Of a stretch of DNA of 64,000 bases, positions 418-48,432 are shown piece after piece. Position 1 is the first letter of the stretch. Every line of letters starts with the position of its first letter. Made by a program: the position numbers and the translations under genes. Source of the stretch: Sipunculus nudus (Eukaryota > Annelida > Sipuncula > Golfingiida > Sipunculidae); contig CM049317.1 of NCBI GenBank assembly GCA_026874595.1, forward strand, positions 56,020,118 through 56,084,117, written 5' to 3'. The notes under the pieces were generated by a model. It saw only the letters and a list, made by a program, of their open reading frames with translations. It had not been told where the DNA came from and made no database searches.

Positions 418-829
418 TTTACTAATTCATTTCTTAATGTCAGACATCTTGTTCCCCAAAGCGCCCCATTGGCACCCGTTGTTTGATGACGTTACTCAGT
501 GTAGTTGGTCCCATACTGTACAAATTATTCTCAAACGCCGTTGTAGTTTTGTCTTCAAACGGGTTTTCCGGCGGCCACCGTCTGCTTCTGCAAATATTGC
601 TCAATAAGATACGGAGGAAGAATAAAACAAAGAAGAGGAGAGGAAGAAGAAGGAGAAGATGATGATGAAACAGGAAACGTAGAGGAGAAAATAATAATAA
701 TTTTTCTTTTAAAAAAAATAGTAAGAATCATCATCAACAAAATGCCTTTTTTTCATAATAACAGTAACGGACAGAATTACACTCTTTAGAGCGACGCCTC
801 CGCCAAGAGCAAAATAATCCTACTTGGAA

Positions 830-1044: not shown

Positions 1045-1271
1045 TTAAAACATAACTTCATCGGCGGATGTAATTAAGCCTTTGCCCATTGGAGGGAGAG
1101 ACAGATTTAAGCAGGTATTATGACGTTTTAGAAATTTTACAAACCTTGTTATAATCACGGCAATAATGATGACAATAATAATCACAGCCAAACCGCCGGC
1201 CAATACACCCGCCAGCATCGGCATCTGTTGTCCTGTCAGCGCCCCTGTGTCTCCAGCCCCTCCTCTTGTCG
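1045..1271 (-). CDS. Gene 1 last exon: transmembrane segment and cytoplasmic tail
   Basis: Acceptor TTCTTAATGTAG, phase 1 entry, 227 nt to a TAA at 1045-1047. After a short linker rich in Gly it reads MLAGVLAGGLAVIIIVIIIA and VIIT, a clear single membrane span, followed by the stop-transfer cluster RFVKFLKR. The tail ends TSADEVMF. I see no ITAM, ITIM or SH3-binding motif in the 34 tail residues. The small-residue pattern AGVLAGG could support helix packing. This is too short for the usual ORF length cut-offs but is well supported by phase and by context after a mucin stalk. Confidence 0.8.
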
Positions 1272-4200
1272 CTACATTAAGAAAATATATTTGAAAAGGA
1301 GAAAAGATGTTGTGGTCAATCAGTGTTCAGCTTTACAATACTTCATTAATTACTCATAAATTATTAATTAATTAGCTGTATACCCATACTTTCGACATTC
1401 GATCTCTGTCATCCGGGTTTCGAAAGACTTGGGAGAATTAATCTTTCAAAGTCCGATAAGGCCGAGGGGATGCTACACGGAAGAATATAAATGCGGAGGT
1501 ATTTTGGTGGCAAAGCAAACATGTATCGGCAACGTTTAGAGCGGGATATCTGTTTTACTGACCACGTGAAGATCTTCAAATTAAGATTTTTCAGGCACCG
1601 ATGAATGTAAGAACTCCTAAGGATTGGGTAAATATGCCCTATATTTTTACCTTTGCGAATTGCCTTTGTTTCGTACCCGTCAATGTTTTAAAAGTTATTT
1701 GTGGGAATTTATTTTTTTTTATTTTCTCGCGTCATTTCCTTCAATTCTTTTGTTAAAATACTCTGCTACTTTTCACTTTAGATATGTTTAACAAATTACA
1801 CAGGCCTAATAAAATCCGCAGATTTTAGTATTTTTTAAATCAAATTTTGATCGAAATTAATTCCATCTGTACTGACACTACAAGACTTAAGTCAACTCTT
1901 TTTACTGTTGTTTTGTGAATTAAATAAGGACACAATGTAAAATATATTATTAGATAAAAAAGGAAGCTCTAATTTGATGGACATTATAGCATTATAGCTA
2001 ACCCCCCCCCCCCCCCCCGAAAAGAACCCACAAAAAAACAGGTCTTGAACATGAAAATATCAAGCTTACCCATAAATATTCAAAGAATGACAAGTCCGGC
2101 ATACGAGGCGTATGCACAGTAGAGAGTTGACTCTCCCTTAATTAGGACCATATTTTCATCGCCAACTCACCGGTTTCTGTAGAAGTCGATGCACGCCCTG
2201 AAGATGGCGCCACCTTGGGAGTTGTCGAGGTGACAGGAGTCGGCGTTATTGGCGCATGCGTAGTGCTGCTTCGAGTAGTAGAAGAATCTGACGTCATTTC
2301 ATTTGGCGTCTTTCTCGTTGTGTAAAACGTTTCTTTCTGTGTTGTTCTTTTTGCTGAGGTAGTGACATTTTCAAGCGTTGTTGCAATGGCCGTGGTGAAG
2401 AGCTCGGTTGTCCTCTGCGTAGCAAACTTAATCGCAGGGGTGAGGGTTTCCGGTGTGGTTGGTATTTCCGTTGTCTCTGGCGTGTTTGTTGTCGTAATGA
2501 CAGCTTGCATTGTCACAGGTTTGGTAGTTGATGCAGTTAATTCAATTGTGGTTGTTTGCACAGTGGTGACCGCTCTTTGTGTGGTTTGCGGTGTGGTTGT
2601 TTGTGGCGGTCCTGTGGTCCGTGTGGTAGATTGCAAGGATGTTGTTGTAGGTGCCATGGCTTTTGTCGTTGAAGGTTTTTGGATTGTTGTCGGACTTGTT
2701 GTTGTTGATGTTGTGCGTCTCGTTGTTCTTTTTGATGTTGTTGGTTGCGTGGCCTGAGTTGTCGGTCTGGTTGTGGGCGACGTCTTTTTTTGTGGCGTCG
2801 TCTTTTCTTGTGTTGTTGGTTTGGTGGTCTGGGTAGTGCGTCTGGTTGTGGGCGTCGTCATTTCTGTTGTTGTTGGTTTGGTGGTCTGCGTTGTGGGTCT
2901 GGTTGTGGGCGTCGTCTTTTCTGTTGTTGTTGGTTTTGTGGTCTTTCTTGTACGTATGGTTGTGGGCGTCGTCGCTTTTGGTGTTGTTGGCTTAGTTGTC
3001 GTCGTCCTCCTACGTGTTGTTTTCTTGGTGGTTTGGGTTGTCGTCTTGGCAAGATCTGTGAAGTCAGAAAAACAATACACTGGAGAAAAAAACCTTTAAA
3101 AACACAAAAGGTTTCAATGATGAACTAAACTTAGGTATCAACTCAAAAATATAAGACATACTTCTTCTAATTAGTTCTTATCAATTTTAAGACGCACATA
3201 AACAGAGGGACTAAATTATTGATTTGACTCATTCATTGAGACGCACATACAAAACAGAGGGACTAAATTATTGATTTGGCTCATTCCTCGAATATTCGTG
3301 GTAAATGCAGACCTACCGAATTCACAAACGAATCCGCGTCGTGGTTGATTGCACCTTTGTGAAACCCATTGACCTTGACCTTCTGACGTCATTGACAAAC
3401 ATTGTCCTTCCAAAGGCTCTTTTTCGTCAGTCTCTTCCCAAAAATCTTCTTTGATTTCCATGTCTTCACGCGAAACTGCACAGGGTTTGTAAAATTACTC
3501 AAACAGTTCCTCTATCTCTCTCTCTCTCTCTCACTCTCTCTCTCCCTCTCTCCGATTCATGTGATGTCACTTGTTTCTTTTGATGGACTTGTATGGAGTA
3601 GCGGGTTTTGGAGGTGTTGAACAATAATAATGATAATAACAATAATAATGATGATAAACAAAATAAGAATAAATTAAAAATAAAATTTATAATTTTGTTA
3701 ACTTTCTTTCCTGATACAATAGCCGTGCCTTTCGGGCAACCTTTGATCAAAGCAATATCCTTGTAAACACCCCTATAAACTAGAAATCTGCATTTTAAGG
3801 AAAGAAAGCCTCCGCCATTCGTGTGGGTGTGTTCGGGGGGGGGGGGGGGGCGCAAATATGTGGGATGCAGACAGCCACTCATCTCAGAACCTGGAGCACA
3901 CGTTTCAAAAACGCTCTGCGAACTTTGTGCAGTTTCATTCTTAACTGATAAGGAACAAATGCGTTTGAATACCTGTAACCAAGGGAATTCTTCAGCTAAA
4001 GATAACCCATGCAACAATATATATATATAATATGTTTTTTAAAAGTGATAAGTGATTTATTAATGAATTATAAGGTATTATATCAAGAGAAAACATGGAA
4101 CAGCACCAAGACACAGCCTTCTTTGACCTAAAAAATGCATTCGACACGATCAGCCTAGATGGCCTCTAAAAGAGTATGGGGAAATATGACAGTTTAATAA

Positions 4201-7200
4201 GATCATCACCAATGACAACCACTACCATGAAGCATCCCTCGCATTTTTAATATAAACCACAATAAACGAAAAAAAAAAACTCACCACCAGCCCATACCCA
4301 TCGCCGACTAGTCCCGTGGACCCAGAACTGCATTCCTGCCCAGTGTTCCCTGGTTATAGCTTGTTCAGCCCTGTACATGCGTCGAGTTGAAAATGACACG
4401 GGAGCCGAATTCCTCATGGGGGCCATATTGTAACAGTCGGCCATGACCTCATCCCAATCAACCGCTCGGTCAGTCATTCGAAAGCATTTGCCGATGGTTA
4501 GGTCAATGTACTCATTGTTTCGACACATACCTTCGTTTTGAAGATCTACCAACAAGAATAAAGATATATTAGGCCAAAAAAGGTATGGTTCTCAGGCACT
4601 TTTAACAGAAATCAGTGCTGGCGGGCGGCTTTTTTTATAACCTTTTTTGTATGTTTCGATAAAAAATGTCATATGATCAGGGAAAAGCATGATAATAACA
4701 TATTTTTTTGGTAAACAGGTAAAAGCACTACATAACAAAGGAAAACCTAACAAATTTATTATTTTATTTTGTTGAAAGATGAAAATCAAAATACAATTAT
4801 TTTATGCGGGGGGGGGGGGGGGTTAAAATTGACGCGGGCGACGCCGAGAACCATACCTTTTTCTTGGCCTTACCAATCATCTCTACGGATAAAAGCCGCT
4901 TCTTATCGTAACTGCCACTAAGATTTAGTTTGTTATATGATGAATAATATGTTAAGTATTGCAGACTGGTTTTAGGTATTATATCTCTTTTTTTAATCTT
5001 TGTATAATAGTTTCATACACTAGATACGGCTTGTGCATTTATCTAAAAATTTCGCTTTAAATCTTAAAAATACGCATTTCTTACCCACTTGAGGATAGAA
5101 GATATGAAATGTATAATTAGTCATAAATGCGTTTTTATGAGATTCGGATATGTTTATAATAGTAGCAAGTAAACCTGGGCATTGACCAATTAATAATTTT
5201 AAAATACTTATCGCAATATACTTAACATAATACAAGATACGCACTGAGGAGGTGGATTCTGAAATGGAACTCTGCAGATGCACATACTTGGGTTAAGAAT
5301 TAGATAAGGTATGCAGAAAAGAAATGGAGGCAGCTACCTCCACCCAAAATTAAAAATTGAAAATATGAAAACTAGTAGCCCATGGGCCATGACGCTCAGC
5401 TGAATTCAAGGAATGTTGAACAATGAGCAAAATGACTGCCAGAGTGCATAAAAAAATAATGATTTTTGTGAAGTTTCCCTAGAATTTGGTTTCAGTGGGC
5501 TTTCATTTGAAAGTCTCCTAAATAGAAGAAAAAATGCGTAACAAATTAAAAGAAATACAAATGGTGCCACCAGTCTGAAGGAAATGATGAAACACTCCAT
5601 GATCAATATATATCCAAAGAATCATGGCTATCAAGGCATTAGTTATTCAGAAACGGGAGCTTTGTATCAAATTTTTAATTATACTTGGGGGTACTTACGA
5701 GCCCTATAGCTCTGAGAATATGGGTAACAGAGACCAAATTTCATGTTTCCAAGGAGATTTTTATAGACTTCCCTTGATGTCAAGTAAGAAGATTCCAGGT
5801 CTAGCGGTTACAATTTGTGCCCTGTTAACGGACGGACGGACAGCTGGCCGGCCGGCCGGACGACGGACGAAGAGTGATCGCTATAGCTCAGATGACATTC
5901 AGTCAGCTGAGCAAAAAATCCCACTTTTGGACATTGTGACATTGAAAAGTAGGTCAAGGTCACTTAAACTGGGTAAAATTTATTGGACCATGATAACGTA
6001 TAATGTAAGTAAGCGTCAATGAAATCGGATGAAAAAAGTGGCAGAATAATAATAATAATACATATAAGGAGAAGAAAGAGAATGCCAAAAAAAAAAACAA
6101 ATATCTCAATCTATGTATAGGTGGAGAAAATCAAGAAGAGTGTCGATCATAAATTACTGACCTAGTATGCACATAGCTTTATTTCCAACATCACAGTCCT
6201 CGTTAAACCAGGAAAGCCTGGAATCAAGCATCCGTTCTACTGCTAGCAGACATTGGCTTGTAGACGTTACTTCTTCTGCTCTGCCGTCACGCCAAGAATC
6301 CAACAGATCATTTACTGTAATCAAAAAGAAGGAAGTTGGATATATTCTAAAAAACAGTTTTATTAACTTAAAGGTGCCTATACAGATATGTGGCGCATAT
6401 TAACCAAAGATAATTCATTGAAACGTTTATAAGAATAGGCCAGAAATGTCAGTCCCACCGCACACAAGTTGGTTATGCCTTTCGTTTACATTCATACTGA
6501 TAAAATAATCCAAACACATTCAGCCATATGGCGGCAAGTCAAACGAATTAGAGTCTTGCAAAGGGCGTTTTCAACTAGTGACCATCAAACTTCCGCACAT
6601 GTGCAACCAACTACCTTCGGTTTTTCAGTATTGCTGTGTTTACCTACAGTCTGTAGATAAACAAGTATCTACATACATCTCGTTGGTCTGATTACACTGG
6701 GACACCACTGTCGTTGGTCTGATTTCTGGCCCGGTGTTATCAGACGAACGAGAGCGGGTGTTGCAGGTTAAAATTTTGGAGCTGGATGCACAAGGCGATA
6801 CCACACTATTATTGGTCTGATTGCACTTCTTTGCTCTGTACCCATCCTGGCGGTGGAACCCAGAAAATTTGGCTACAAAGCAGCGATTACAAGAAAGACT
6901 GCAGTGTATAAGGGCTGCGTGATGAGCGTAGCCTGCAAAGGTCAGTCACTGTTACAAGAGGCAGTTTTGACCCAGAATTTGGGGCATCCGATCTTACGTT
7001 GGATCTCCGGAACCGAGCGTCCAATGAGACTTGAAGTGTCACAGACGCTTACCCCTGCGTTCTTGAAAGTCCTGTTATATATAAATGTATATATATAATT
7101 AAGGGAGTAAATTAACATCAAACAGATCCTTCAGTGATGTTCATTATGCTGCTTTTACATATTTAGAACACATGTACGTACCATCTAGAGCGTAAACCGC

Positions 7201-10200
7201 GTTGGCCTCATTATTTCCACACTTGTGTTGTATTGGACACCGGTCGCTGGACCTGCAGTTCTGATGAGGTGGGTCACTGGAGCTGCCGAATGAGTTACCA
7301 CAGCAACACTCGAATGTATCAACATCCTGGAAAGACAATTGTACATTCCTAGAAATATACCAGACGAAAATCATGTGGGCGGTCCTCAATGTGGGATACT
7401 GTGTAACCCATGTTTTAATTCACTCATTGGCCATGGGAGGGAGGTGGGGAGCTGTCGGTTTTGAGGAAGGGCCTGTACTTAAGCTTATGGGGATTTCAGA
7501 TTTTCTGCAGTGCATTTTCTCTTTAATAGACCAACGGTTATATTAATCCTCCGTCAGAGGGAGCACCAGGCGAGAATGAAAGGAAGGGCCTTCGTGTAGC
7601 AAGAAGTTCTCTGAATGCTCCGGTAGGGTGAACCCTCTGGCGGTTAAACACAGAGGGGTCCCCGTATAGCTATTCCGCAAATTGCCGGCAATTCAACAAC
7701 TTTATAGTTCCCTGAATCCCCCGGTAGAGTGAGCTCCCGACGGTCATACACAGAGGGGCTCCCATCCAGCAATTCCGCAAATTGCCGGCAATTTGGCAAA
7801 TTTGTAGTTCCCTGAATGCTCCGGCAGGGTGAGCCCCGGGGATAATACAGTGAGGGGCTCCCTATAGCAATTCCGCAAATTGCCGGCAATTTAGCAACTT
7901 TGTAGTTCTTAGAATCCTCCGATAGGGTGAGCCCACTATGGTTATACACAGAGAGGTCCCCATGTAGCAATTCCGCAAATTGCCGGCAATTTACAACTTT
8001 GTAGTTCCCTGAATCCTCCGGTAGGGTGAGCCCCTGACTTTCATACACAGAGGAGCTCCCACCTAGCAATTCCGCAATTGCCGTCAATTTAGCAACTTTG
8101 TATTTCTTAGAATCCTCCGGTAGGGTGAGCCCCCGCCGGTCATACACAGAGGGGACCCCATCTAGCAATTCAGCAAAATGCCGGCAATTAAGCAACTTTG
8201 TAGTTCCCTGAATGCTCCAGTAGGGAGAGCCGCGGGGTTCATACACTGAGGGGCTCCCATCCAGCAAATCCGCAAATTGCCGGCAATTTAGCAACTTTGT
8301 AGTTCTTAGAATCCTCCGGTAGGGTGAGCCCACTACGGTTATACACAGAGGGGTTCCCATCTAGCAATTTTGCAAATTGCTGGCAATTAAGCAACTTTGT
8401 AGTTCTTAGAATCCTCCGGTAGGGTGAGCCAACTACGGCTATACATAGAGGGGTCCCCATGTAGCAATTCCGCAAATTGCCGGCAATTTAGCAACTTTGC
8501 AGTCTTCTGAACCGACCGGTAGATGGAGCCCGGGCGGTTATACACTGGAGGGGGGGGGGGGGGCCTTCTAGAAAATCCGCAAATTGCCAGCAATTTAGCA
8601 ACTTTACATTATTCTGAATCCACCGGTAGAGGGAGCCCCCGGGGGTCATACACGGAGGGGTCCCCACCTAGCATTCCGCAATTTGCCGGCAATTTAGCAG
8701 CTTTGTAGTTCCCTGTATGCTCCGGTAGGTAGAGCCCCGGGGATCATACACTGAGGGGCTCCCATCCAGCAATTCCGCAAATTGCCGGCAATTTAGCAAC
8801 TTTGTAGTTTTCTAAATCCTACAGTAGGGTGAGCCCCCGCCGGTCAAACACAGAGGGGTCCTCATCTAGCAATTTTGCAAATTGCCGGCAATTTAGCAAC
8901 TTTGTAGTTCCCTGAATGCTCCGGTAGAGTGAGCCCCCGCCGGTCAAAAACAGAGGGGTCCCCATCTAGGAATTCCGCAAATTGCCGGCAATTTAGCAAC
9001 TTTGTAGTTCTCTGAATCCTCCGGTAGAGTGAGCCCCCACCGGTCAAACACAGAAGGGTCCCCATCTAGCAATTCCGCAAATTGCCGCCAATTTAGCAAC
9101 TTTGTAGTTCTTAGAATCCTCCGGTAGGGTGAGCCTATTGCGGTAATACACAGAGGGGTCCCCATCTAGCAATTCCGCAAATTGCCGGCAATTTAGCAAG
9201 TTTGTAGTTCCATGAATGCTCCGGTAGGGTGAGCCCCAGGGATCATACACTGAGGGGCTCCCATCCAGCAATTCCGCAAATTGCCGGCAATTTAGCAACT
9301 TTGTAGTTCTCTGAATCCTCCGGTAGAGTGAGCCCCCGCCGGTCAAAAACAGAGGGGTCCCCATCTAGGAATTCCGCAAATTGCCGGCAATTTAGCAACT
9401 TTGTAGTTCCCTGTATGCTCCGGTAGGTAGAGCCCCGGGGATCATACACTGAGGAGCTCCCATCCAGCAATTCCGCAAATTGCCGGCAATTTAGCAACTT
9501 TGTAGTTCTCTAAATCCTACGGTAGGGTGAGCCCCCGCCGGTCAAATACAGAGGGGTCCCAATCTAGCAATTTTGCAAATTGCCGGAAATTTAGCAACTT
9601 TGTAGTTCCCCGAATGTTCCGGTAGGGTGAGCCCCAGGGATCATACACTGAGGGGTCCCCATCTAGCAATTTTGCAAATTGCCGGCAATTTAGCAACTTT
9701 GTAGTTCTCTGAATCCCCCGGTAGAGTGAGCCCCATCTGGTCAAACACAGAGGGGTCCCCATCTAGTAATTTTGCAAATTGCTGGCAATTAAGCAACTTT
9801 GTAGTTCTTAGAATCCTCCGGTAGGGTGAGCCAAATACGGTTATACATAGAGGAGTCCCCATGTAGCAATTCCGCAAATTGCCGGCAATTTAGCAACTTT
9901 GTAGTTCCCTGAATGCTCCGGTAGGGTGAGCCCCGGGGATCATACACTGAGGAGCTCCCATCCAGCAATTCCGCAAATTGCCGGTAATTTAGCAACTTTG
10001 TAGTTCTCTAAATCCTACGGTAGTGTGAGCCCCCGCCGGTCAAACACAGAGGGGTTCCCATCTAGCAATTTTGCAAATTGCCGGCAATTTAGCAACTTTG
10101 TAGTTCCATGAATGTTCTGGTAGGGTGAGCCCCATCTGGTCAAACACAGAGGGGTCCCCATCTAGCAATTTTGCAAATTGCTGGCAATTAAGCAACTTTG

Positions 10201-37200: not shown

Positions 37201-40200
37201 CTATATTTCAATGTTCAGTCAACCGTATGTGACTTCACATTTGTGAATATTCTTGTAAGTCCTTCCTGGGTCCGGATCATTAGCCGGACCCACACCAAAA
37301 TCCAATCGATATTTCAATTGGCCCATCGTGAGTATAAACACACAAACAAACACACAGATACGGGAATGAGCGGATACCCTCCTAACGAAGGGAAATATCA
37401 TTTATAGGTTAATACAATACATATTTATACATTTACAATATTCCTCTGATATTAATGATTGAGAAAAACAGAGAGAGAGAGAGAGAGAGACAGAGATAAT
37501 AAGAGAGGGACAAAGTAATAAAGATTTATCTTTGAAAAGTCGACATTAATATATCTCTCACTATGTTCTTGTGTAATGTCACATCACGTCCCCATTTATT
37601 CGGTTTGTATGAGCATTATTCAAGTAAGGAGAATTTCCAAGAGTAAATAAATGTGATTTTTTTTTACCTCAGAGAATGTGAGAAAACGAGGGTATTCTTG
37701 TTGTCAATAATAGTACTCCTGAGCGGACCTGTGTTCGAAAAGAAAGGGTTTAATACTACTGGGTCTTGTGTTCACGTCTTGTTCTCTATATTTAAAATTA
37801 CCATAACATACTATAAATTGTCATAACTTATCCATACCATTTCGTTCATGGCCATGAATGAAAAGTCTCGCATAGTGCAGTGCTGCCTACAATCCGAAGC
37901 GTCTTTTATGTAAAGATTAAATGTTCGGCAGGCTTCTTCCATTTCTGGCTGGTTCTGACCCTGTGGTACTTTGTAACAACCCTGATAGTAAACGGCCACG
38001 GGCGAATGGTCGGCTGTCAAATTAAGGATTTATTAAAGTTAAGTTGAATGGTTAATATGTTGTGTGTTAAATATGATGACAACATATGCAAATCTTCCGA
38101 CTTCCGGCTCACAAATTCCATATTTTGTCCGATTTGACATATAAGATCAGGTCAAGGTGAGCAGTGTTTGAACCCGTCTGAGATTTTGGTACAAACGGAA
38201 TGTGTGTCAAATTTATTCGGGGGGGGGGGAAGGGGGGGGGGGGAATTGTTGATTTACCATTGAATGATAAATTCTTAATTTTTACTCATAATATTTTATT
38301 TAAATTAACCACATGGAAAATATGAGATTAAACAGCTGAAATAAATCTATGAAAAAACGACATTATCACAAAAAATGTTAATTATAGTGTTAATTATAAT
38401 TCTACTGATTCTTACACTCAAAAACCCAGGAAACATAACATGCAAACATAAGATATACAAGGACTCGTCCTATTTTGAGCAAAACAGAAAAAGAATTTAA
38501 AAGATCTTTAGGTGATAAACATAAGGTAGCAAATGATTTGTTGGGGTAGTCTGAAACCGTATGGGTTAATCTGAAATCGACTTCAAGTTACTCCTGTGCT
38601 CAATCTGAAATCGACTCCAAATTACTACGAGTTATCTGAAATCGACTTCAAATTACTGTGGGTAATCTGATATCGACTTCAAGTTACCTTGGTCAATCTG
38701 AAATCGACTCCAAGTCTGCGAGTAATCTGAAATCGACACAAGTTACTGGAGGTGATCTGAAATCGACTTCAAGTTATCGGGGGTAATCTGAAATCGCTAC
38801 CCCAGTACCCATGCAGCTCCAGTCTTATGGTTTGGAAAGCACTTGTGTGTATTTTGCATATCTCCATTCTAAATTGAACTTCAATTTAGACACGTAAATC
38901 TAGATACTTAAGTTTAGACACTTTAATTTACCGTTGATCCAGTTCCAGTAAAGCGGAGCTGTGCGACCTCCGAGCCAAGCGTTCGGAGTTAAAGTATCCC
39001 TCAGTAGTTGTTGTATAGCGCGGTGTGTGGCTGTGTCATTGTCCACCGCCAGTTGACCAAATCTGTCCTCACACTGCCGTCTGGCGCCTTCCCATCCAAT
39101 AGGAGAACCATATATACAGTACTCCCGGGAAACTGCAAAGAGCAAACCTAACAAAAATAGCAGAAATCTGACTTTGTTACATATAGCACGCAATGATTTA
39201 GACATTGGGCATAGGTGTAGAATGAGCTTGGCAGAGGCGTGTATATTTCAGTTTGAAATAGCGTCTTTAAATTGTTGTCTATATTTTATTATTCAAGGTC
39301 ACATTTTAGCAGTGTCATTGCCTATACTTTTGTTGTAAGGGTTTCCGGGAAGACATTATACGTAAAAAAGCATGTCGCTTTACATGTTCGATATATCCAA
39401 TTTAATATAGGTACCAGTCGGAGAAACCAATTTTCACATTGTCGAGGTAAACACAAACTATGAAAAATTAAGACACACAAACAAAACTCTCGCTTTACAT
39501 GTTCGATATATCCAATTTAATATAGGTTCGAGGCAGAGAAAGCAATTTTAACATTGTCGAGGTAAACACAAAACAATGAAAAATTAACTCACACAAACAA
39601 ACCTTAGACTTAGATAAACCCTCTTATGCAAAGGAAATATAGTATATGTATTCACAAAAAATCCTCACAGCAAACTTCCGTATATATCTTAACTTGAAAT
39701 TTGCAATTCTAATAAATTCAAGCATCTGCCCTTAACTTATTCGGCCCATATTCTCAGGTACATTCCGGCATAAGTGACTAAACATTCGTGAATATTCCTT
39801 GACAACGTTCATGGATCCGGATTATGTGCCGGACCTATACCAAAGTCTAATCGATTGTCTCCTATGTCTTCATTGTCCCATTCCCGTTATACCATCAGAA
39901 ATTTCATGAGATTCCACTCATGATTGTGTGATGTATGTTGTGAAGAAACACACAAACACACGAACGTAAATGAATGTATACCCTCCAGGCGGAGACATAA
40001 GAGTTATACAGCCAGCATGGCATACTAACGCGCAATAAACTGGATACCGATACGAGCAAAGGTACAAACGGTATTATCAACAGTGTATGCAGAAAATCTT
40101 ACCCTTGAAAACAGAAGCACAGAGTATTTTCTGCTAAGACTTCGACAAAGAAAAATAAAAGAGAATAAATATATCGTAAACGAGGAACCTGTAATGGGGT

Positions 40201-41662
40201 TCAAGAACCAAGTACCGGTCCTATAGTAAGGTGATCATGCTGCCACTGGGACACCCATGCGATTGTAAGAAAACGTCCTGTAATGCATAGTACCGATACG
40301 AATCATATGAATATCCGTGAATATTAAGTTAACAAAATCGAAAAGAAAATTAAAATTAATTTTAAAACCTTTTGTCATCAGGCCAGAAGAGGCTGGATTT
40401 GTGACATGGATTTATGATACGAGATGTTTTTGAACTAGTGCAAAGAAAAACTAAAACCACGCGTGATTTAGTAAACGGGATTTGAGAACTCTCTGTATTC
40501 AGTGCTGATTTAAAAGAGTACTGCTAATTCAGTAGAGTATAATGCAACAATTTCAGTGTTGGTATTTCATTCAATTTTTAAAGTAATTAACGAATTTAAT
40601 ACACCAAGAGAGACAGCTCCTCATGTGAAAATACTGCGTATTTTAACTATTGAAAAATATATATGGACTTTTTTCAAATAAGAAGACGGAATATTAATAT
40701 GTTTAAGATGACAGAATATGTTTAAGTTTAATACAAGAAGAGAAAGAGTAAAATATCTTTTTTCTTAATTATAGACAAGTACTTGAGCGTGTTGTATAAG
40801 TCTAATATATTTTAAACCATATTATACCATACCTTATAAATAAGATTGAAGGTTATGATATTATATTATTATCATTATCATTAAATTAATAAACGTCTAT
40901 ACAATTAAGGTCACAACTGTGAATAGCCGGCTTCAGCGACGATATGTCTCATGACATGTATGACGGGTCGACTGTCTCGTCGCCTCCCATACATTTTGAG
41001 TTAAGTGGTGTTTGGACACGATACGATCGTATTTCTCGAAAAGTGAGCTGTGTTTTCAGTTCTGTTGACATTGTGGCATTAAAACATTTGCAGAATTTTA
41101 TAAGTATCTTATGTGTAACATAACCGCAACATTGGAAGTGCGTTTTACTTCAGTTATTGAGTGTTTTGGTTCACCAAGATACGGCCCATACTATGCACAG
41201 CCACCATTACAAAAGCAGTGAGAACGTATTTATAGCAACGTGTCTTATTGTACTATACCTGCAATAATAAGGCATTATGTGTATTTAAACTAAGAATATA
41301 TATGCGTATTAGCTTATCACATCTGAATTGTGTTTAAATAAACTAAGACACCCGAGGTTATTATGGATTTTCATTTGTTACAGTTCCATGTCTTGAGAGC
41401 ATATAATATAATCCCACCCAAATGCATAAATGTGGGTCGGTGACTAAAATGTACCGTCAGATATATCTAACAGTTAGTGGCTGAAATGTGAACAGTTTTT
41501 ACATTATATTCCTCATTACTATTCAATTTAAGAATGCATGGCTTTAATCAATTTAAAGAGCTTACCTGTGTAAACCTTTGTGCATTCTAGCTCTTCCTGA
41601 CATATAATGGTCTCCGGCAGTGTGATCAAGGTGAACAGAACATAATATACAAAACGTCTCAT
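1045..41662 (-). CDS. Gene 1: type I membrane mucin-like receptor with CTLD, WSC and second CTLD (spliced model, cassette B)
   Basis: Exons in transcript order: 41566-41662, 38932-39132, 37838-38013, 7182-7326, 6162-6314, 4285-4545, 3317-3475, 2171-3055, 1045-1271. They sum to 2304 nt, giving 767 residues plus stop, and every junction is in frame. Order of parts: signal peptide (about 1-21), first half of CTLD1 (33-99), WSC domain (100-206), second half of CTLD1 (207-257), CTLD2 (258-397), Thr-rich stalk (398-692), membrane segment (about 711-733) and a 34-residue cytoplasmic tail. All junctions are phase 1 except the one inside the WSC domain, which is phase 0. CTLD and WSC domains are known carbohydrate or protein binding modules. 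A role as a surface glycan receptor is inference. No transcript evidence is available, so exon joining rests on splice sites, phase and domain continuity. Skipping both WSC exons would give an in-frame 660-residue form. Confidence 0.72.
1272..2170 (-). other. Intron of gene 1 (mucin to membrane exon)
   Basis: GT-AG intron. AT-rich with a run of about 17 C at 2001-2018. No other structure noticed. Confidence 0.6.
2171..3055 (-). CDS. Gene 1 shared exon: Thr/Pro-rich mucin-like stalk
   Basis: One 885-nt exon, acceptor TTCTGACTTCACAG, donor G|GTGAGT, phase 1 at both ends, adding 295 residues. It begins DLAKTTTQTTKK and runs in imperfect repeats such as TTKPTTTEKTTPTTRPTTQ toward a less regular Ser/Thr/Pro-rich end. 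There is no Cys. Such sequence is expected to be densely O-glycosylated and extended, holding the lectin head away from the membrane. Open frames on the plus strand here are antisense shadows of the biased codons. Confidence 0.8.
3317..3475 (-). CDS. Gene 1 shared exon: second half of CTLD2
   Basis: 159 nt, acceptor CCCTGTGCAG, donor G|GTAGGT, phase 1 at both ends. It reads SREDMEIKEDFWEETDEKEP, then GQCLSMTSEGQGQW, then RCNQPRRGFVCEF. This completes CTLD2. Neither an EPN/QPD tripeptide nor a WND motif is present (QWVSQRC instead), so calcium-dependent sugar binding by this domain is unlikely; protein or other ligand binding is an inference. Confidence 0.78.
3476..4284 (-). other. Intron of gene 1 inside CTLD2
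   Basis: GT-AG intron carrying a (CT)n tract at 3511-3552 and a run of about 16 G at 3835-3850. No coding signal on either strand; the 172-residue minus-strand frame here is composed of these low-complexity tracts. Confidence 0.6.
4285..4545 (-). CDS. Gene 1 shared exon: first half of CTLD2
   Basis: 261 nt, acceptor TTGTTGGTAG, donor G|GTGAGT, phase 1 at both ends. It reads DLQNEGMCRNNEYIDL, then GKCFRMTDRAVDWDEVMADC, and ends HGTSRRWVWAG. Cys pattern and the W..V...C helix fit a long-form CTLD. An alternative acceptor 18 nt further in (AACGAAG|GTATG) would also keep phase. A Harbinger-like MITE ends 27 nt upstream of the exon start, close to its branch region. Confidence 0.78.
4572..4869. 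mobile_element. Harbinger-like MITE with TTA target duplication
   Basis: A 298-bp element whose ends are inverted copies of GGCCAA..AAAGGTATGGTTCTC, flanked by TTA at 4569-4571 and 4870-4872. TTA duplications and GG-starting ends are typical of PIF/Harbinger MITEs. It contains a G run at 4807-4822 and no coding capacity. It sits in the intron just upstream of the CTLD2 first-half exon. Confidence 0.8.
5366..5912. repeat. Dispersed repeat ending in GCTCAGCTGA inverted motifs
   Basis: The left end reads 'agcccatgggccatgacgct' then 'cagctga', and the right end 'cattcagtcagctgagc', so GCTCAGCTGA occurs inverted at both ends. The interior has 'cggacggacgga' and 'ggccggccggcc' tracts. The same terminal motif recurs at 24573, 27070 and 63340, so this is a dispersed family, probably a non-autonomous transposon. 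Confidence 0.5.
6162..6314 (-). CDS. Gene 1 shared exon: second half of CTLD1
   Basis: 153 nt, acceptor TTGATTACAG, donor G|GTCAGT, phase 1 at both ends. It reads NDLLDSWRDGRAEE, then TSQCLLAVERMLDS, then WFNEDCDVGNKAMCIL. This is the C-terminal half of a CTLD: QCL, W..(N/D)..C, and a final (F/M)(V/C)C. No first-half exon lies next to it. The nearest compatible partners are the cassette CTLD exons, which end at the equivalent position in phase 1. Canonical EPN/QPD sugar motifs are absent. The W-F-N-E-D-C stretch is a partial WND motif. Confidence 0.78.
6690..7060. repeat. Dispersed repeat shared with 50450-50920
   Basis: Segments such as 'ggtctgatt', 'tggagctggatgcacaaggc', 'ggtggaaccc' and 'aaagcagcg' recur in order at 50450-50920. 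Within an intron of gene 1. Family not recognised. Confidence 0.5.
7182..7326 (-). CDS. Gene 1 shared exon: second half of WSC domain
   Basis: The acceptor is GTCTTTCCAG and the donor G|GTACGT. The 145-nt exon enters in phase 0 and leaves in phase 1. It reads DVDTFECCCGNSFGSSS, then C....C....KCGNNEANAVYALD. The CxCGNSF and CG..NA.AVY signatures are those of the second half of a WSC domain. The phase-0 acceptor pairs with the WSC first-half exons 23 kb and 30 kb upstream. I found no second copy of this exon near either cassette. Confidence 0.8.
7605..11197. repeat. 99-bp tandem satellite, long array
   Basis: About 36 head-to-tail units of 98-100 bp. A unit contains 'gtagggtgagcccc', 'catacactgaggggctccc', 'agcaattccgc' and the palindrome AAATTGCCGGCAATTT, then 'agcaactttgtagtt'. 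As 99 is 33 codons, frames stay open through several units on the minus strand, which explains a 238-residue frame and many shorter ones; these lack start context and are not genes. Two units carry G runs (8549-8562, 10747-10761). It lies in the gene 1 intron between cassette A and the shared exons. Confidence 0.92.
11198..14321. other. AT-rich intronic stretch, no gene
   Basis: About 3.1 kb between two satellites, inside the same intron. AT-rich, with only short frames. A stretch near 12640-12780 reads on the minus strand like a decayed coding fragment (..YKMFLEGDHASKQVLVNH..) but has no domain I recognise. A piece near 13790 (gactaagagtcatctgagctg) resembles the GCTCAGCTGA repeat ends. Confidence 0.5.
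14322..21700. repeat. 77-bp tandem satellite with telomere-like cores
   Basis: Roughly 95 units of about 77 bp, for example 'gtttgtcactattaatatat', 'gctatatccgggatacgggt', 'taccctaacccttcgggcat', 'gaaatactccagtaa'. Some units carry an extra copy of 'agtgtttactccagta'. Each intact unit has TTACCCTAACCC, two near-perfect copies of the (TTAGGG)n telomere motif on the minus strand. Short open frames here repeat along the array and are not genes. Confidence 0.92.
16540..21060. repeat. Higher-order duplication within the 77-bp satellite
   Basis: The variant order of 16540-18930 recurs at 18940-21060 at an offset of about 2390-2400 bp. Landmarks: 'gacaatgtgtacatgaaata' (about 16580 and 18980), 'ggcatatcctggataggggt' (about 17060 and 19450), and the identical stretch at 17677 and 20065. 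The second copy lacks about 270 bp near its end. Confidence 0.8.
21701..23234. mobile_element. 1.5-kb TIR DNA transposon inserted in the 77-bp satellite
   Basis: Left end CAGTATTTCCTTGAACAGAC-GCC and right end (reverse complement) CCGTATTTCCTTGATCAGAA-GCC form terminal inverted repeats. The flanks are satellite sequence broken between 'gtttgtcacta' and 'ttaatat', with TA at both sides (21699-21700, 23235-23236). Subterminal motifs 'ggcgtctaaacaaggccggc' repeat at both ends. Inside is a tandem duplication (about 22100-22290 and 22290-22480). No transposase frame is visible, so it is non-autonomous. TA duplication suggests a Tc1/mariner-related or similar superfamily, not proven. Confidence 0.85.
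22768..22799. repeat. Perfect short hairpin inside the TIR element
   Basis: TACCGCTTG, loop TAT, CAAGCGGTA, with further 'taccgcttga' copies at about 22670. Possibly a binding site or fold of the mobile element. Confidence 0.5.
23237..23335. repeat. Continuation of the 77-bp satellite beyond the transposon
   Basis: About one and a quarter diverged units ('ttaatatctggtatatccct' then 'gatacgggtgaccctaagcc'), continuing the array interrupted at 21700. Confidence 0.85.
23338..23529 (+). pseudogene. Possible coding fragment of unknown origin
   Basis: After 'ccgtttcag' the frame reads SNTAKASYRKEDAKAFFTLV, continues AGAGLDEVTEEINGNRPIVK and ends LCETLNLESY-stop, about 63 codons with a protein-like composition unlike its surroundings. 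It begins exactly where the satellite stops and lacks a start codon. It could be a terminal exon relic, a captured gene fragment or part of a mobile element. I do not recognise the family. Confidence 0.3.
23530..28137. other. Repeat-rich intronic stretch, no gene
   Basis: Part of the long gene 1 intron. It has two diverged copies of one repeat (24573-24850 and 25440-25680; shared 'atctcctacca', 'gactgccta', 'aaaaccact'), a (GT)n tract at 24361-24382, C runs at 25268-25292, 26226-26242 and 28077-28092, a (GTCC)n tract at 27295-27335, and a repeat end at 27070-27105 ('cagctgatcggcgtgaccca'). No convincing frame on either strand. Confidence 0.6.
28138..29440. repeat. 99-bp satellite, short array in inverted orientation
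   Basis: About 12-13 diverged units carrying 'caaagttgctaaattgccgg' and 'caatttgcggaattgct', the reverse complement of the units at 7605-11197. It shares the palindrome AAATTGCCGGCAATTT. It lies immediately next to the left end of cassette A. Confidence 0.88.
29600..29790 (+). repeat. SINE-like repeat, copy at left end of cassette A
   Basis: Reads 'gggtccggatcattagccgg' then 'ccaaaatctaatcgatattt', then 'acacacaaacaaacac' and the 'cctcctgactgagg' end. This is the common arrangement of a dispersed family with a short inverted CCTCC/GGAGG end. The matching copy in cassette B is at 37230-37395. Confidence 0.6.
30022..30362. mobile_element. Harbinger-like MITE present only in cassette A
   Basis: Left part 'gtatggttctcaggcaccgc' and right part 'agtgcctgagaacca' are inverted ends of the same family as 4572-4869. 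It is absent at the equivalent place in cassette B (about 37640), and its length accounts for most of the offset change between the copies on either side. Confidence 0.65.
30564..30740 (-). pseudogene. Gene 1 cassette A, exon 3: frameshifted first half of WSC domain
   Basis: Homologous to 37838-38013 with the same acceptor and donor, but 177 nt rather than 176. One extra A in the run at 30645-30648 (plus strand) shifts the frame and brings a TAA at 30643-30645, just after the residues C-R-T-F. A transcript using this exon would stop after about 131 residues, with no membrane anchor. It is either a real one-base insertion that disables the exon, or a homopolymer error in the assembly. If both WSC exons are skipped, cassette A can still join the shared exons in frame. 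Confidence 0.75.
31270..31850. repeat. 28-30-bp VNTR in cassette A intron
   Basis: About 19 units of 'tctgaaatcgacttcaagtt' plus 'actggaggtaa' variants. The counterpart in cassette B (38550-38800) has about 9 units. It lies between the CTLD and WSC first-half exons. Confidence 0.85.
31990..32190 (-). CDS. Gene 1 cassette A, exon 2: first half of CTLD1
   Basis: 201 nt, phase 1 at both ends, acceptor CTCTTTGCAG and donor GTAAAT as in cassette B. It reads SREYC, W-E-G-A-R-R-Q-C-E-N, NAWLGG and YWNWING. The open frame extends upstream through the acceptor to an ATG. That upstream part (MSKSLRAIC..) is also hydrophobic, so an alternative start with its own leader is possible, but the clean acceptor and the separate signal exon make the spliced reading better. 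Only synonymous changes separate it from cassette B after residue 55. Confidence 0.75.
32870..33060 (+). repeat. SINE-like repeat in cassette A
   Basis: 'cccggattatgtgccggacc', 'ctaatcgattgtctcc', 'ttcatgagattccactcatg' and the end 'taccctccaggcggag'. Copy in cassette B at 39812-40000. A diverged inverted relative is at 59560-59720. Confidence 0.6.
34623..34719 (-). CDS. Gene 1 cassette A, exon 1: signal peptide
   Basis: Duplicate of the cassette B signal exon, with the same 97-nt length and phase 1 exit at donor GTAAGC. It reads MRRFVYYVLFTLITLPGTSI and continues to KVYS. Differences from B are few (GTS for ETI, S for T at the end). An upstream in-frame ATG exists, 60 nt earlier. About 140 bp upstream of the ATG there is a CCAAT-like box on the minus strand (34859-34864) that is altered in cassette B. 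It could start a second transcript of gene 1. Confidence 0.6.
35367..35560. repeat. Half Harbinger-like MITE, cassette A (copy in B at 42357-42570)
   Basis: Begins GGCCAA..AAAGGTATGGTTCTC and 'caggcaccgcccgcgtcaat' after a TAA. The opposite terminal repeat is not visible. It is present in both cassettes, so it predates the duplication. Confidence 0.55.
35650..35865. repeat. Dispersed repeat, also at 42640-42850 and 59960-60140
   Basis: Shares 'atgattttatactgacagca', 'ttgaagcct', 'tatcgccacctgttggccaa' and 'ggttactaacat' with the other copies; the one near 60 kb is diverged. Short open frames here are repeat-derived. Confidence 0.6.
36553..36915. repeat. Possible pogo/Tigger-like MITE relic (copy in B at 43550-43915)
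   Basis: Left part 'acagtcggtcctgcttaatt' and right part 'ggtggtcttattgaca' resemble ends of Tigger-type elements. The inverted repeat is weak, so the family is uncertain. Confidence 0.3.
37230..37395 (+). repeat. SINE-like repeat at left end of cassette B
   Basis: Near-identical to 29600-29790: 'ggtccggatcattagccgga', 'ccaatcgatatttcaattgg', 'acacacaaacaaacacacag', 'ataccctcc'. Followed by a (GA)n tract at 37470-37492. Confidence 0.6.
37838..38013 (-). CDS. Gene 1 cassette B, exon 3: first half of WSC domain
   Basis: The acceptor is AATTTGACAG and the donor ATG|GTATGG. The 176-nt exon enters in phase 1 and leaves in phase 0. It reads VAVYYQGCYKVPQG, then DASDCRQHCTMRDFSFMAMN, matching the N-terminal half of WSC domains (GCY, then the CxxxC region, then Y/F-x-x-M/L). 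The phase-0 exit is unique in this gene and matches only the exon at 7182-7326. It cannot join in frame to the cassette A exons that lie downstream of it, so these must be skipped if cassette B is used. Confidence 0.8.
38550..38800. repeat. 28-30-bp VNTR in cassette B intron
   Basis: About 9 units of 'tctgaaatcgacttcaagtt' plus spacer, the shorter counterpart of 31270-31850. A G-rich run at 38219-38243 lies just upstream. Confidence 0.85.
38932..39132 (-). CDS. Gene 1 cassette B, exon 2: first half of CTLD1
   Basis: The acceptor is CTCTTTGCAG and the donor G|GTAAAT; the exon is 201 nt with phase 1 at both ends. It reads SREYC, then W-E-G-A-R-R-Q-C-E-D-R-F-G-Q-L-A, then NAWLGG and YWNWING. 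This is the usual first half of a CTLD (WxxAxxxC helix, W-x-GG, WxW strand). The first CTLD exon of gene 2 is also 201 nt. The CTLD is completed by the exon at 6162-6314, because the intron falls at the same place after WxWxx as in CTLD2. Compared with cassette A it differs at 7 bases, 4 of them changing residues 39, 41, 43 and 55. Confidence 0.8.
41566..41662 (-). CDS. Gene 1 cassette B, exon 1: signal peptide
   Basis: The exon reads MRRFVYYVLFTLITLPETII followed by CQEELECTKVYT, a typical short basic start and hydrophobic core. It ends ACA-G before donor GTAAGC (phase 1). I chose the second of two in-frame ATGs. The first lies 60 nt upstream, is preserved in both cassettes, but its leader differs between copies while this segment is conserved. 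Cys27 could pair with Cys38 of the next exon as the extra N-terminal disulfide of long-form CTLDs. The near-identical copy is at 34623-34719. Confidence 0.7.
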
Positions 41663-42159
41663 GTTTCTCTTAACTCCTCTTAGTTTGCAATAAGTAGAAA
41701 ATAAAAATAAAAATCTTCTCATAAAAGAAAACCTTAATTTGTTTTGAACACCTATATAATAATATCAGGTAATACGTCAAATCATATAAAGTATATGAAC
41801 TATTCGCTCAGTTCAGTTGCGAGAATATGTTGCTGTCGCAAAATAATATACATGACAACTATACGTTTAACCATCACAGATGAAGTGCGCCTATTTTGTG
41901 ATATTAGTGCACGAGTGTAACCTTGATATATAGACATTTATCAATATCCAATCAAGGATCTTATCGACAAAGTAACATCTGATAATCGATGACTGACCGG
42001 TGTGAAAGTCTGGTTATTGATCGAACAGTTCATCTACATCGTGAAGGTCAGTATTGTCTGGTCAAGACTCATGAATAAATATAAACAAATAAGTCACGTT
42101 TATATGATATCAATTTGAACAGCCATTGATGAAGTCACAACATCCGAGTCCTTGTGCAA

Positions 42160-42262
42160 GTCCGAGGTCAGGCCACACGAGTCCAAGTCCGAGGTCAGGC
42201 CACGCGAGTCCAAGTCCGAGGTCAGGCCACGCGAGTCCAAGTCCGAGGTCAGGCCACGCGAG
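42160..42262. repeat. 27-bp VNTR in cassette B
   Basis: Four units of 'gtccgaggtcaggccacgcg' plus 'agtccaa'. Cassette A has only about one to two diverged units at 35220-35275. Frames on both strands here are repeat-derived. Confidence 0.85.
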
Positions 42263-44153
42263 TCCAAGTCCACCTTCTTCGTGTCTGGGTCATCTGGAAC
42301 CCGCGTCCAAGTCCTTGTCAGAGTCCCATACAAATATCCTTTTTAAAAGAAATTGTAAGGCCAAAAAAAGATAAAGGGTATGGTTCTCAGGCATAGCCCG
42401 CGTCAATTTTAACTCCCCGCATAAAAAAATTATTTTGATTTTAATTTTTCAAATAAATAATATAATGCAATTTTGATAATATTTCCTTTGTTATGTAGTG
42501 CATTAACCTGTTTAGCAAAAGAAATCTGTTTTTTTTTTCATGCTTTTCCCTGATCAAATCAAACAAAAACCACTGAAAATCAACTAATTTCTTTGGCATT
42601 CCTGAATATTTTAGTTCTTTCGACTGGTAATCAGCAGAAACAATTTTATTTTAAAAGAAATTGTATAATTCAAAGATATGATTTTATACTAACAGCACGG
42701 GAACCGAACGCTCTCTGTGGAGCAAGGAGACTTGAAGCCTCTGGTCTTGGACTGAGGAAAATGTATCGCCACCTGTTGGCCAAATTGGTTACTAACATTT
42801 GCCTACAGCAAACTTGATATGAGTGAGGATGGAAATAAATGTCAAATTTCCCTACACTGTTTATTTTTATGCTGTGGGTTGCCTTTTTGTTCCCGAGGGT
42901 CTCATATTTGCGATATTCGCGAAAATATCGCGAAAATAAAACCCTCCTGAATAACAGGTCCCATTGTCGCTGGCAAGTTGAAAGGTAAAAACGATTAATA
43001 TTAAGAATAATAATAAATCTTGTAGGTTCAAATATTGCTATTATAAATTATAATCATATTTCAAGTTATCTTTTATGAACAATAATTAAAGTCGGTCGAT
43101 GTTCGCTTGCGTCCCAGTGGGATTGTTAAGATTTTTCTAACGTATATTTTTAAATATAATTAATTAATATAATAATGGTTATATAATCTGTGTATGTATT
43201 TTTATAGTGAGATCGCGAAAATGGAACCCTCGCGAACAGATAATTGAAATTCTCGAAATTTTGTCCCTACGAATATGAAGTAAACAACAGTATGCATGTC
43301 TTATTATTTTATGCTAGTAATCACTTAAAACAACCAAAATATTCAAGAATGTCAAAGAAATGATTTGATTTTTAGTGGTTTTCTGTGAAGAGTCCGATCC
43401 TCCAAAACTGGTCCGGTGCATGCGAGTCCGACAAATACGTTGCCTCGTCCTCGACGCTTTTAAGATCGTGTGTGTGTGTGCGTTTGTGCGTGCGTGGGTG
43501 TGTCATTGACATAGTTCATTCTCTGACAGCTACAAGAAACGATCATATACAGTCGGTCCTGCTTAATTGTATATCGTATATTTGTATATCCGTTTAATTG
43601 TATAAGGTCACGAAAACCAGAACCTTTTCCAATGTTTTCTTAATAAAATTCACCGTTTTCATGTATATATGATAAATGTATATATCGGTTAATTGTATAG
43701 TATACTCCGTCAATCATGCACGACAATCCTGGCTATTCATGTGCGACAATGATCTCAATTAAGGATGTATTGAAACCTGTGGAACTCCCCAAAGGTGGTT
43801 TTAATTCAGAGGTGGTCTTATAAGACAGGTGAGTTATAACCAATGTGAATGCGTTCGGTTCAATCAAGGGAGGTCTTAATAAACTGGTGGTCTTATTGAC
43901 AGTTTGTCTTCCAGATAAATTCCACGGTATGTTTTATTGTGATCAAGACATACAAAGAGTTCAATACGTGTGGAAACAAAATATAAAATGGTTTAAGAGG
44001 GCCAACCCTTATGTAAACTTATAATTCAGAACAATATTTGAAAACCTGCCGATACTAATAAGATAATTCTTTAATTGTTTATATATTAAACATACGATTT
44101 ATTTCAATCTCATCTCGAAGTCTCAAAAGAGTTATAGGTATATAATGTAATCC

Positions 44154-45615
44154 CTAAAATAAAAATGCTCACATTCGAACAAATAATGATTTTCATCCCC
44201 AACAACACCACGGCTACATAACTGACACTGCTTTCATCTTATGCACGGTAACCACAGGAGGCGTCCAGCCGTAAATACACGACTATGTAAGTTGGCATTC
44301 ATATATAATTGGACTGGTAAGCCTAGTTGCGTCGTTACACAAGTCATTATAAAAAATGCACTTCAACTGGCTACCATCCAACCTATCGGCGTATTGCATC
44401 AATATTGTGTTAAACAGCCGGTAATCTTAACATTAGACCACTCTCCCACTAAAAACGGACCTCTTCCATCTAGGGATTGTGGGACGGCCGGGACCATACC
44501 TGTTTCAACTTCCAATCTTTAAAATCAAAATTAGTCACAAATCAAGAAAAATCCCTCTGTAATACACATGCATACATATCTATAGTTTTAAATTCAGATT
44601 TGCATAATACAAACAATAATATTGGGCCAAAAGGGTCAAAGGTCAAGGTAACATTAAAGGTAAAATGTAGATGGTTATTTCTTATTAACTAATTCAGATA
44701 TCAAGTTTATACTAATTTTGATTTTTTTTATCATTATTTTTAAATAAATTTTTAATTAACAAAGACACCCCATGTTTATATACCATAAACAGTTTTAATT
44801 AGCATTAGTGCCCTACTGCAACACCTAACTTCCGGTCATTTCAGGTTGGCACGCATCTCATGCAAATCTGCAAAACCCAGGTCTTCATAACTCTAGGAAA
44901 AGACATATTTTTCATGGGAGATGAGCCGCAATATATCGGTCTTGGTATCTTTATTACACTAGTACATGTATTAAATAACATGCAAATGTAATTAATAATA
45001 TAACTTTTGCGGCAATTTATTTTAAATAGATTTATCATAGCTTTTAAATCTCGTATTTGCCAGGTGGGTTATTTGAATAAAATATCATGAGTTATAAGGA
45101 TAGGAATTTATCATTTAGTAAAAGCAGCGAGGTGATCGGACCAGTGCTTTGATAACCTGAAATTAGGGTAAAGACTACCCCTGGGGTTTAATCTTAAATC
45201 GATTCATATCAACGGGGGGGGGGGAGGTAACCCCAAGTCTTTACACAGATAAACATCGCACTACGTAGGGCCCGCTTTACTAATTTCAATTCACCTCAGA
45301 AAAATTGATGCTCCACTTGCCGAGTATACAAATACTATGTATGTAAATTTACCTTCATGTGTTTATATATTCACAGGAGTACTAAACCCTCTGCATTTGA
45401 AGGGGGCTTTTATCTGATGTTCACGTGACCATAACAGTGTAGACACATTTGCGTGTGAGTACCTCAGTGATATTATAGTACCACGTGGTCAATTAAATAC
45501 AGTCAATCTTAAAACGAGGTTACGGACGCTTTATCGTCGGAGAACTCGCATGATCTGTCCGAGGTACTAGCCGTATATTTATGTGATGCCATATAGTATC
45601 ACGCATAACATTACC
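44154..45615. other. Spacer between cassette B and gene 2, no gene
   Basis: Unique-looking AT-rich sequence upstream of the gene 1 cassettes and downstream of gene 2. A 93-codon plus-strand frame (44241-44522) has no recognisable domain and no splice context that convinces me. A G run lies at 45213-45222. Confidence 0.5.
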
Positions 45616-48080: not shown

Positions 48081-48350
48081 CTAAAATTACATCAGTGCAT
48101 ATTCTTGAAAACATTAAGAACTGCATAAATTTATAATAAAGTCCGATAATTCACAATAACTGAAAAATAAAAACCGAATTTATTTACAACTGAATGCGCT
48201 TGGCTAGTTATATACTATAGTATGTAACATTTTTTTATATATATACAGTGAAACTCCCCCCGAAGTCAGACAATCAGGAAATTTGTCCGTATCAGTCAGT
48301 AGTCCTGTTTAGAGGAGTGAATTTTTCTATGAATATTACTGATGTCTTCA

Positions 48351-48432
<82 letters not shown>

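What the first reader, a model, noticed from the sequence alone, without database searches (positions are those of the whole stretch)
1045..44153. Two tandem 5' cassettes share one set of 3' exons: a cluster that may choose alternative lectin heads
Seen: signal peptide, CTLD-first-half and WSC-first-half exons occur twice in ~7-kb tandem duplicates, while WSC-second-half, CTLD, mucin and membrane exons occur once. The WSC first-half exons leave in phase 0 and fit only the exon at 7182-7326, so cassette B cannot splice through cassette A exons in frame. Known: UGT1A and clustered protocadherin genes use variable 5' exons on constant 3' exons. Inference: gene 1 has or is evolving the same layout for a lectin receptor, with a promoter per cassette.
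Basis: partly seen in the sequence, partly recalled or inferred. Interest (0 to 1): 0.85.

Follow-up and report, generated by a model that had tools for sequence, protein, structure and literature searches.

The report
Lectin gene with WSC-split lectin domain
A membrane-lectin gene in what looks like a mollusc genome has a duplicated front end of which one copy is damaged, and it belongs to a large gene family in which a second small domain (WSC) is encoded in the middle of a lectin domain.

Summary
The layout is real: on the minus strand, three 5' exons (signal peptide, first half of a C-type lectin domain, first half of a WSC-like domain) occur twice in a clean head-to-tail duplication (A about 29543-37156, B about 37157-44158), upstream of one set of 3' exons ending at 440. 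The inference of alternative lectin heads is weak. Cassette A's WSC exon carries a one-base length change that shifts the frame into a stop, and a Y-to-H change at a conserved aromatic site. The two lectin half-exons differ at only 4 of 67 residues. Most likely B makes the protein and A is a decaying duplicate.

The more unusual feature was missed. The cassette's lectin half is completed by the shared exon 6162-6314, and the WSC exon pair, a phase-1/phase-1 module, lies between the halves, inside the lectin domain. This order is a family trait: a WSC1 exon follows the first half in 23 of 24 genes examined (not a random sample), and all four pieces in this order were read in 12 of 24, some degenerate. 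86 of 122 genome matches are such half-exons. Whether mature proteins keep the WSC nested needs transcripts.

The parts
41566..41662 (-). Cassette B: signal-peptide exon (from ATG), phase 1 out
   Evidence: donor gtaagc; 94 of 97 nt identical to A
38932..39132 (-). Cassette B: first half of CTLD1, phase 1 in and out
   Evidence: 194 of 201 nt identical to A; Lectin_C when joined to the shared half
37838..38013 (-). Cassette B: WSC1 exon, phase 1 in, phase 0 out, intact (176 nt)
34623..34719 (-). Cassette A: signal-peptide exon
31990..32190 (-). Cassette A: first half of CTLD1
30564..30740 (-). Cassette A: WSC1 exon, frameshifted (177 nt) with TAA; conserved aromatic before QGCY changed to H
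29543..37156 (.). Tandem unit A (ends to within some 15 bp)
   Evidence: self-alignment and junction sequence
37157..44158 (.). Tandem unit B (ends to within some 15 bp)
7182..7326 (-). Shared WSC2 exon, phase 0 in, phase 1 out; no close second copy found in the genome
6162..6314 (-). Shared second half of CTLD1 (completes the cassette CTLD half), phase 1 in and out
   Evidence: Lectin_C profile positions 4-105 when joined
4285..4545 (-). First half of the second CTLD; its intron is at the same place and phase as in CTLD1
3317..3475 (-). Second half of the second CTLD
2171..3055 (-). Thr-rich mucin-like stalk exon
1145..1271 (-). Transmembrane exon, phase 2 out
440..587 (-).

Best explanation
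Gene 1 encodes a type I membrane receptor: signal peptide, CTLD1, CTLD2, Thr-rich stalk, transmembrane helix, short tail. A WSC-like domain is encoded in the phase-1 intron inside CTLD1, so the mature protein most likely carries the WSC domain nested at the start of the CTLD's long loop. This is the shared plan of a large paralogous family in this genome. In this one gene the three 5' exons, with about 2.4 kb upstream of the signal peptide, were duplicated head-to-tail. The 5' parts of the copies are similar (2.5-5% divergence, perhaps kept so by gene conversion), the 3' parts diverged (13-15%), and the copy nearer the 3' exons (A) took a frameshift in WSC1. Transcripts that start at B and join WSC1-B to WSC2 over cassette A make the full protein; A is most likely a decaying duplicate that at best feeds a WSC-less form. 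Shown: exons, phases, frameshift, family-wide order in the genes read, constraint on WSC1. Inferred: transcription, splicing choice, nested fold, silence of A.
For: Uninterrupted chains of 2031 nt (A or B without WSC) and 2352 nt (B with WSC); A with WSC breaks. Joining the CTLD halves restores a nearly full-length Lectin_C match in 4 of 4 members tested, and scores above the same halves with WSC between them: 50 v 38, 37.3 v 27.9, 23.2 v 19.1, 42.8 v 32.8 bits. The joined profile aligns across its length with a PLA2 receptor CTLD (7qsr_A, E 8.1e-19 for the whole chain, profile 3-120 of 123). A WSC1 exon lies downstream of the CTLD half on the same strand in 23 of 24 genes read; all four pieces in order in 12 of 24, of which L055 is degenerate, L033's CTLD half has a stop and L044/L046 lacks two inner Cys. 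Splice phases 1/1, 1/0, 0/1, 1/1 in the 7 genes whose borders were read by eye (for L033 without the CTLD half). In one member the run from first CTLD half to second CTLD lies within 3 kb. WSC1-A/B: nonsynonymous 5 of 137.5 sites against flanking noncoding 97 of 694 (Fisher p = 0.0003) and against synonymous 7 of 30.5 (p = 0.0016). P1 v P2 dN/dS: WSC1 0.50, WSC2 0.13.
Against: No transcript was seen, so WSC skipping in mature mRNA is not excluded; the module is symmetric and skipping keeps the frame. The window's WSC scores 20.4 bits, below Pfam's cut-off of 27.8; only P1 (28.3) passes, and P3 and L032 give no WSC hit. One of 24 loci (L057) showed no WSC1 within 5.2 kb, and in 12 of 24 the full order was not read; the 24 are not a random sample. 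L033's CTLD half, L036's and L038's WSC1 stretches show stops or breaks. P1 v P2 dN/dS for the CTLD second half is 0.64 and for WSC1 0.50, so constraint there is weak. The frameshift is one base in a short T run and could be polymorphic or an assembly error. CTLD1-A itself reads intact.
Confidence: 0.68

Rival explanations
1. Two working alternative 5' ends: B makes the WSC-containing form, and A, whose WSC exon is broken, makes a WSC-less form by splicing its CTLD half straight to the shared second half; each has its own promoter because the upstream region was copied too.
For: SP-A/CTLD-A/shared exons give one uninterrupted 2031-nt frame; about 2.4 kb upstream of the signal peptide is in the duplication.
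Against: No transcript or promoter data. SP plus CTLD show no constraint beyond the intron between them, though power is low. In the family genes read, the WSC exons look like standard parts of the gene, so routine skipping would be special to A.
Confidence: 0.17
2. The WSC pair is a facultative cassette in the family: plain CTLD when skipped, interrupted CTLD when included. (This overlaps with the best explanation; the odds are not exclusive.)
For: Symmetric phases keep the frame both ways.
Against: Short introns and ordinary borders in a compact member; no positive evidence.
Confidence: 0.2
3. The duplication is an assembly artefact of two haplotypes laid end to end.
Against: No N, junction at one poly-C tract, divergence from about 0.4% to 15% and more along the unit, one copy frameshifted, and the shared exons are not doubled. 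Reads were not available.
Confidence: 0.06

Closest known systems
Bivalve C-type-lectin-domain proteins with extra domains (CTLDcps), survey PMC10140915
   Same: WSC is named there among domains in unique bivalve CTLD architectures (Discussion passage); large lineage-specific expansions.
   Different: The abstract, section 2.4, figure legends and passages that I read say nothing on WSC lying inside the CTLD; the find call gave no hit for 'split' or 'exon'. Figures and supplements were not seen.
UGT1A and clustered protocadherin loci (recalled)
   Same: Several 5' units upstream of one 3' set.
   Different: Two units only, nearly identical, one frameshifted, no evidence of separate promoters.
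Polycystin-1 family (recalled; PMC1934368 seen only as a search listing)
   Same: WSC and C-type lectin domains in one protein.
   Different: There the domains are recalled as separate and sequential; here WSC exons interrupt the CTLD. PKD and REJ domains were not among the hits for the parts scanned (stalk and tail were not scanned).
Mannose-receptor family CTLDs (PLA2R, MRC2, LY75)
   Same: Among the best sequence matches of the joined CTLD1 to solved structures.
   Different: No inserted domain shows at the WSC place in the three alignments printed.

Membership tests
UGT1A/protocadherin-like variable-first-exon cluster | One constant 3' exon set | tested here: met
   No close second copy of WSC2, CTLD1 second half or CTLD2 exons in the genome searches; the membrane and tail query did not complete
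UGT1A/protocadherin-like variable-first-exon cluster | Each variable 5' unit intact and in frame with the constant exons | tested here: not met
   WSC1-A is frameshifted; A is in frame only if WSC is skipped
UGT1A/protocadherin-like variable-first-exon cluster | Own promoter and transcripts for each unit | not testable with these tools
   No RNA data; upstream DNA is duplicated but promoter activity is unknown
C-type lectin domain (Pfam Lectin_C) | Near full-length profile match with the conserved Cys | tested here: met
   50 bits against cut-off 22.6 for the scanned chain, best stretch profile 4-105, halves joined; alignment
C-type lectin domain, calcium-dependent sugar binder | EPN/QPD and WND motifs (recalled) | tested here: not met
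   Absent from CTLD1 and CTLD2 in the translations, by eye; WFNEDC is the nearest
WSC domain (Pfam PF01822) | Score above the gathering cut-off of 27.8 bits | tested here: inconclusive
   Window 20.4 bits; paralogue P1 28.3 bits; P3 and L032 no hit; homology by alignment
Bivalve CTLD-WSC proteins (PMC10140915) | CTLD and WSC in one transcript | not testable with these tools
   Gene order and phases only

The most novel reading that the evidence does not exclude
A large receptor family in this lineage folds a WSC domain nested inside a C-type lectin domain, created by exon shuffling of a phase-1-symmetric WSC module into the phase-1 intron at the start of the CTLD long loop, giving one composite head that may bind two ligands. 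In this member a duplicated 5' cassette with a broken WSC exon would let the cell also make the un-nested form.
Probability: 0.55. Interest if true: 0.68.

Novelty: new variant of a known kind. Interest (0 to 1): 0.52.

Why it matters
CTLDs are usually strung side by side with other domains (general knowledge). A family of dozens of genes in which another domain is encoded inside the CTLD would show that the long-loop entrance tolerates a whole domain, would give a clean case of exon shuffling into a domain-internal intron, and would mean that domain counters list such proteins as partial lectins. For the question as posed, the locus shows how a partial 5' duplication over shared 3' exons starts and, here, seems to decay rather than become a choice of heads.

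Tried and rejected
Separate 3' exon set for cassette A: none found. A CTLD second half inside each cassette: none seen among the minus-strand ORFs of 38 aa or more listed between 31990 and 30740 or between 38932 and 38013; that stretch is largely a 31-bp minisatellite. Gene 2 as a third cassette: rejected, since its PAN exon reaches a stop at 47812. ORF 6945-6640 and the open stretch near 7060 as further exons: no Pfam hit and, by eye, phases that do not fit. RNA families and tRNAs: none. A tandem 12.7-kb array at C12:25.64 Mb as a possible cassette array: rejected, the first unit holds all six CTLD and WSC exons. Genome-wide pairing of WSC exons with CTLD halves: planned, never answered. A genome search with the membrane and tail exons: not completed. 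Structure prediction was not used: the tool takes proteins that the DNA gives letter for letter, and a spliced protein is not clearly that.
Full report
What is there. Gene 1 runs on the minus strand. Exons were placed by open frames, AG/GT borders and phases: signal peptide 41662-41566 (B) and 34719-34623 (A), counted from the ATG; first half of CTLD1 39132-38932 (B) and 32190-31990 (A); WSC1 38013-37838 (B) and 30740-30564 (A); then, once each, WSC2 7326-7182, second half of CTLD1 6314-6162, CTLD2 4545-4285 and 3475-3317, a Thr-rich stalk 3055-2171, a membrane exon 1271-1145 and a tail exon with stop 587-440. All junctions are phase 1 except WSC1/WSC2 (phase 0) and membrane/tail (phase 2).

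The duplication. Unit A (about 29543-37156) and unit B (about 37157-44158) abut in a poly-C tract with no unique DNA between them. Divergence is uneven: 5.0% upstream of the signal peptide, 2.5% in the signal-peptide/CTLD intron, 13.5-15.4% on either side of WSC1, with 250-column windows from about 0.4% upward. This patchwork suggests gene conversion in the 5' part, which is inference. The genome searches found WSC1 at two places, WSC2 at one and CTLD1 first halves at two places at high identity, so no second 3' set was found, and the haplotype-artefact reading is unlikely.

Cassette A is damaged. WSC1-A is one base longer than WSC1-B and the frame closes at TAA. It also has H where the residue before QGCY is aromatic in 12 of 12 aligned WSC1 sequences (the A sequence itself is). 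WSC1 shows constraint between the copies: nonsynonymous 5 of 137.5 sites against 97 of 694 flanking noncoding sites (p = 0.0003) and against 7 of 30.5 synonymous sites (p = 0.0016). Signal peptide plus CTLD half show 7 of 228 nonsynonymous changes against 61 of 2418 in the intron between them (p = 0.66), so nothing shows that the second copy of these exons is being kept or diversified; at this low divergence the test is weak. A-started transcripts keep a full frame only if both WSC exons are skipped.

A WSC domain inside a lectin domain. The cassette CTLD exon ends in ..YWNWIN and holds the first of the four core cysteines plus an extra one near its start; the shared exon 6314-6162 supplies the other three. 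Joined, they match Lectin_C from profile position 4 to 105; the scanned chain scores 50 bits joined and 38 with WSC between the halves. The same holds for three paralogues: 37.3 v 27.9, 23.2 v 19.1 and 42.8 v 32.8. A five-row profile of joined CTLD1s (window B and A, P1, P2, P3; the A row has the same second half as B) matches PLA2 receptor 7qsr_A at E 8.1e-19 for the whole chain, best stretch profile 3-120 of 123; in that alignment the WSC position falls just after the segment aligned to FEWSN, before the long loop (the structural name of that place is recalled). CTLD2 has its intron at the matching place and in the same phase, without an insert.

It is a family trait. The genome search with the joined CTLDs listed 122 matches, with only the best candidates scored; 86 are first-half exons, 80 of these ending at query position 64-73, on C12, C7, C13, C15, C9, C6, C1 and C2. 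I read downstream sequence for 24 genes: the window gene; P1, P2 and P3 on C12 at 34.05, 33.98 and 33.72 Mb; 14 of the best hits, those given loci (L031-L038, L040-L045); one tandem-array unit (L052); and five lower-ranked hits that I chose by hand (L054-L058). They are not a random sample. A WSC1 exon follows on the same strand in 23 of 24, all but L057, which showed none in 5.2 kb; in L033, L034, L041 and L042 it lies about 3 to 5 kb away. L055's is degenerate, L036 shows a stop next to the match and L038 loses the match after its first part. All four pieces in order were read in 12 of 24: window, P1, P2, P3, L032/L047, L033/L048, L044/L046, L052, L054, L055, L056, L058; of these L033's CTLD half carries a stop, L044/L046's second half lacks two inner cysteines, and splice borders of L044, L054, L055, L056 and L058 were not checked. 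In the other 12 the downstream reach was short or the pieces were not recognised. Borders were read for 7 genes (for L033 without its CTLD half) and agree in phase; P3's WSC1 uses a GC donor. In the three 30-kb paralogue regions one CTLD1 first half per gene was found; the other loci are too short on the 5' side to show whether they have a second 5' cassette.

Mechanism and rivals. Most likely a phase-1-symmetric WSC module was shuffled into the phase-1 intron of the first CTLD before the family expanded, and the proteins carry a nested WSC. Skipping would keep the frame, so an optional WSC is possible. P1/P2 dN/dS is 0.10 (CTLD first half), 0.50 (WSC1), 0.13 (WSC2), 0.64 (CTLD second half) and 0.20 (second half of CTLD2); with the short introns of a compact member this argues that the WSC exons are used, though WSC1 and the CTLD second half are only weakly constrained. 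For the window gene, B with WSC is the only full-length WSC-containing reading, and A is most likely decaying.

Literature. Ten searches of the held library were made. PMC10140915 (abstract, section 2.4, figure legends and passages read) names WSC among additional domains in unique bivalve CTLD architectures and says nothing, in what I read, on nesting. PMC4581086 (passages only) lists a WSC protein and lectins separately. PMC1934368 was seen only in a listing. I found no paper describing a WSC domain within a CTLD in those searches; most subscription papers are not in the library.

Noticed in passing
for example C5:66538719, C7:25357254, C7:29985589-29988791 of the genome: Dozens of nearly equal-scoring Lectin_C matches in uninterrupted frames of about 360-382 aa lie on most of the numbered large contigs, some two or three in a row; this looks like a lectin domain carried by a dispersed, perhaps mobile, element.
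   Followed up: no
47812-51233, minus strand: A second gene: an exon like a CTLD first half (no Lectin_C hit), a CTLD second half (Lectin_C 33.2 bits) and a PAN exon (PAN_1 34.6 bits) that ends in its own stop.
   Followed up: partly
31290-31842 and 38567-38796: The same 31-bp minisatellite in the CTLD/WSC1 intron of both cassettes, about 17 copies in A and 7 in B.
   Followed up: no
7605-11197, 14326-21700 and 28140-29070: Large 100-bp and 77-bp minisatellites lie in the long intron; a related 100-bp array lies in the opposite orientation at 28140-29070.
   Followed up: no
6640-6945 and about 6980-7075, minus strand: Open stretches with splice-like borders and Cys between WSC2 and the CTLD second half, no Pfam match, phases that do not fit the gene.
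   Followed up: partly
L052+L053 (C12:25636500-25650000): A family gene with its CTLD and WSC exons in 3 kb, followed 12.7 kb on by the same CTLD half again; one search lists three CTLD-half hits of equal score at that spacing.
   Followed up: partly
L049, 1891-4051 of the reverse complement: A long Pro/Ser/Cys-rich repeat open in several frames just downstream of a WSC1 exon.
   Followed up: no
29588-29793, 37204-37405, about 32880-33020, 39867-39966, 59600-59697 and L015: A dispersed repeat with a similar open stretch (DFG.G.A...PGRT..NIHKC) sits at the ends of the duplicated units, inside them, and near a paralogue; the link between all these copies was judged by eye.
   Followed up: no
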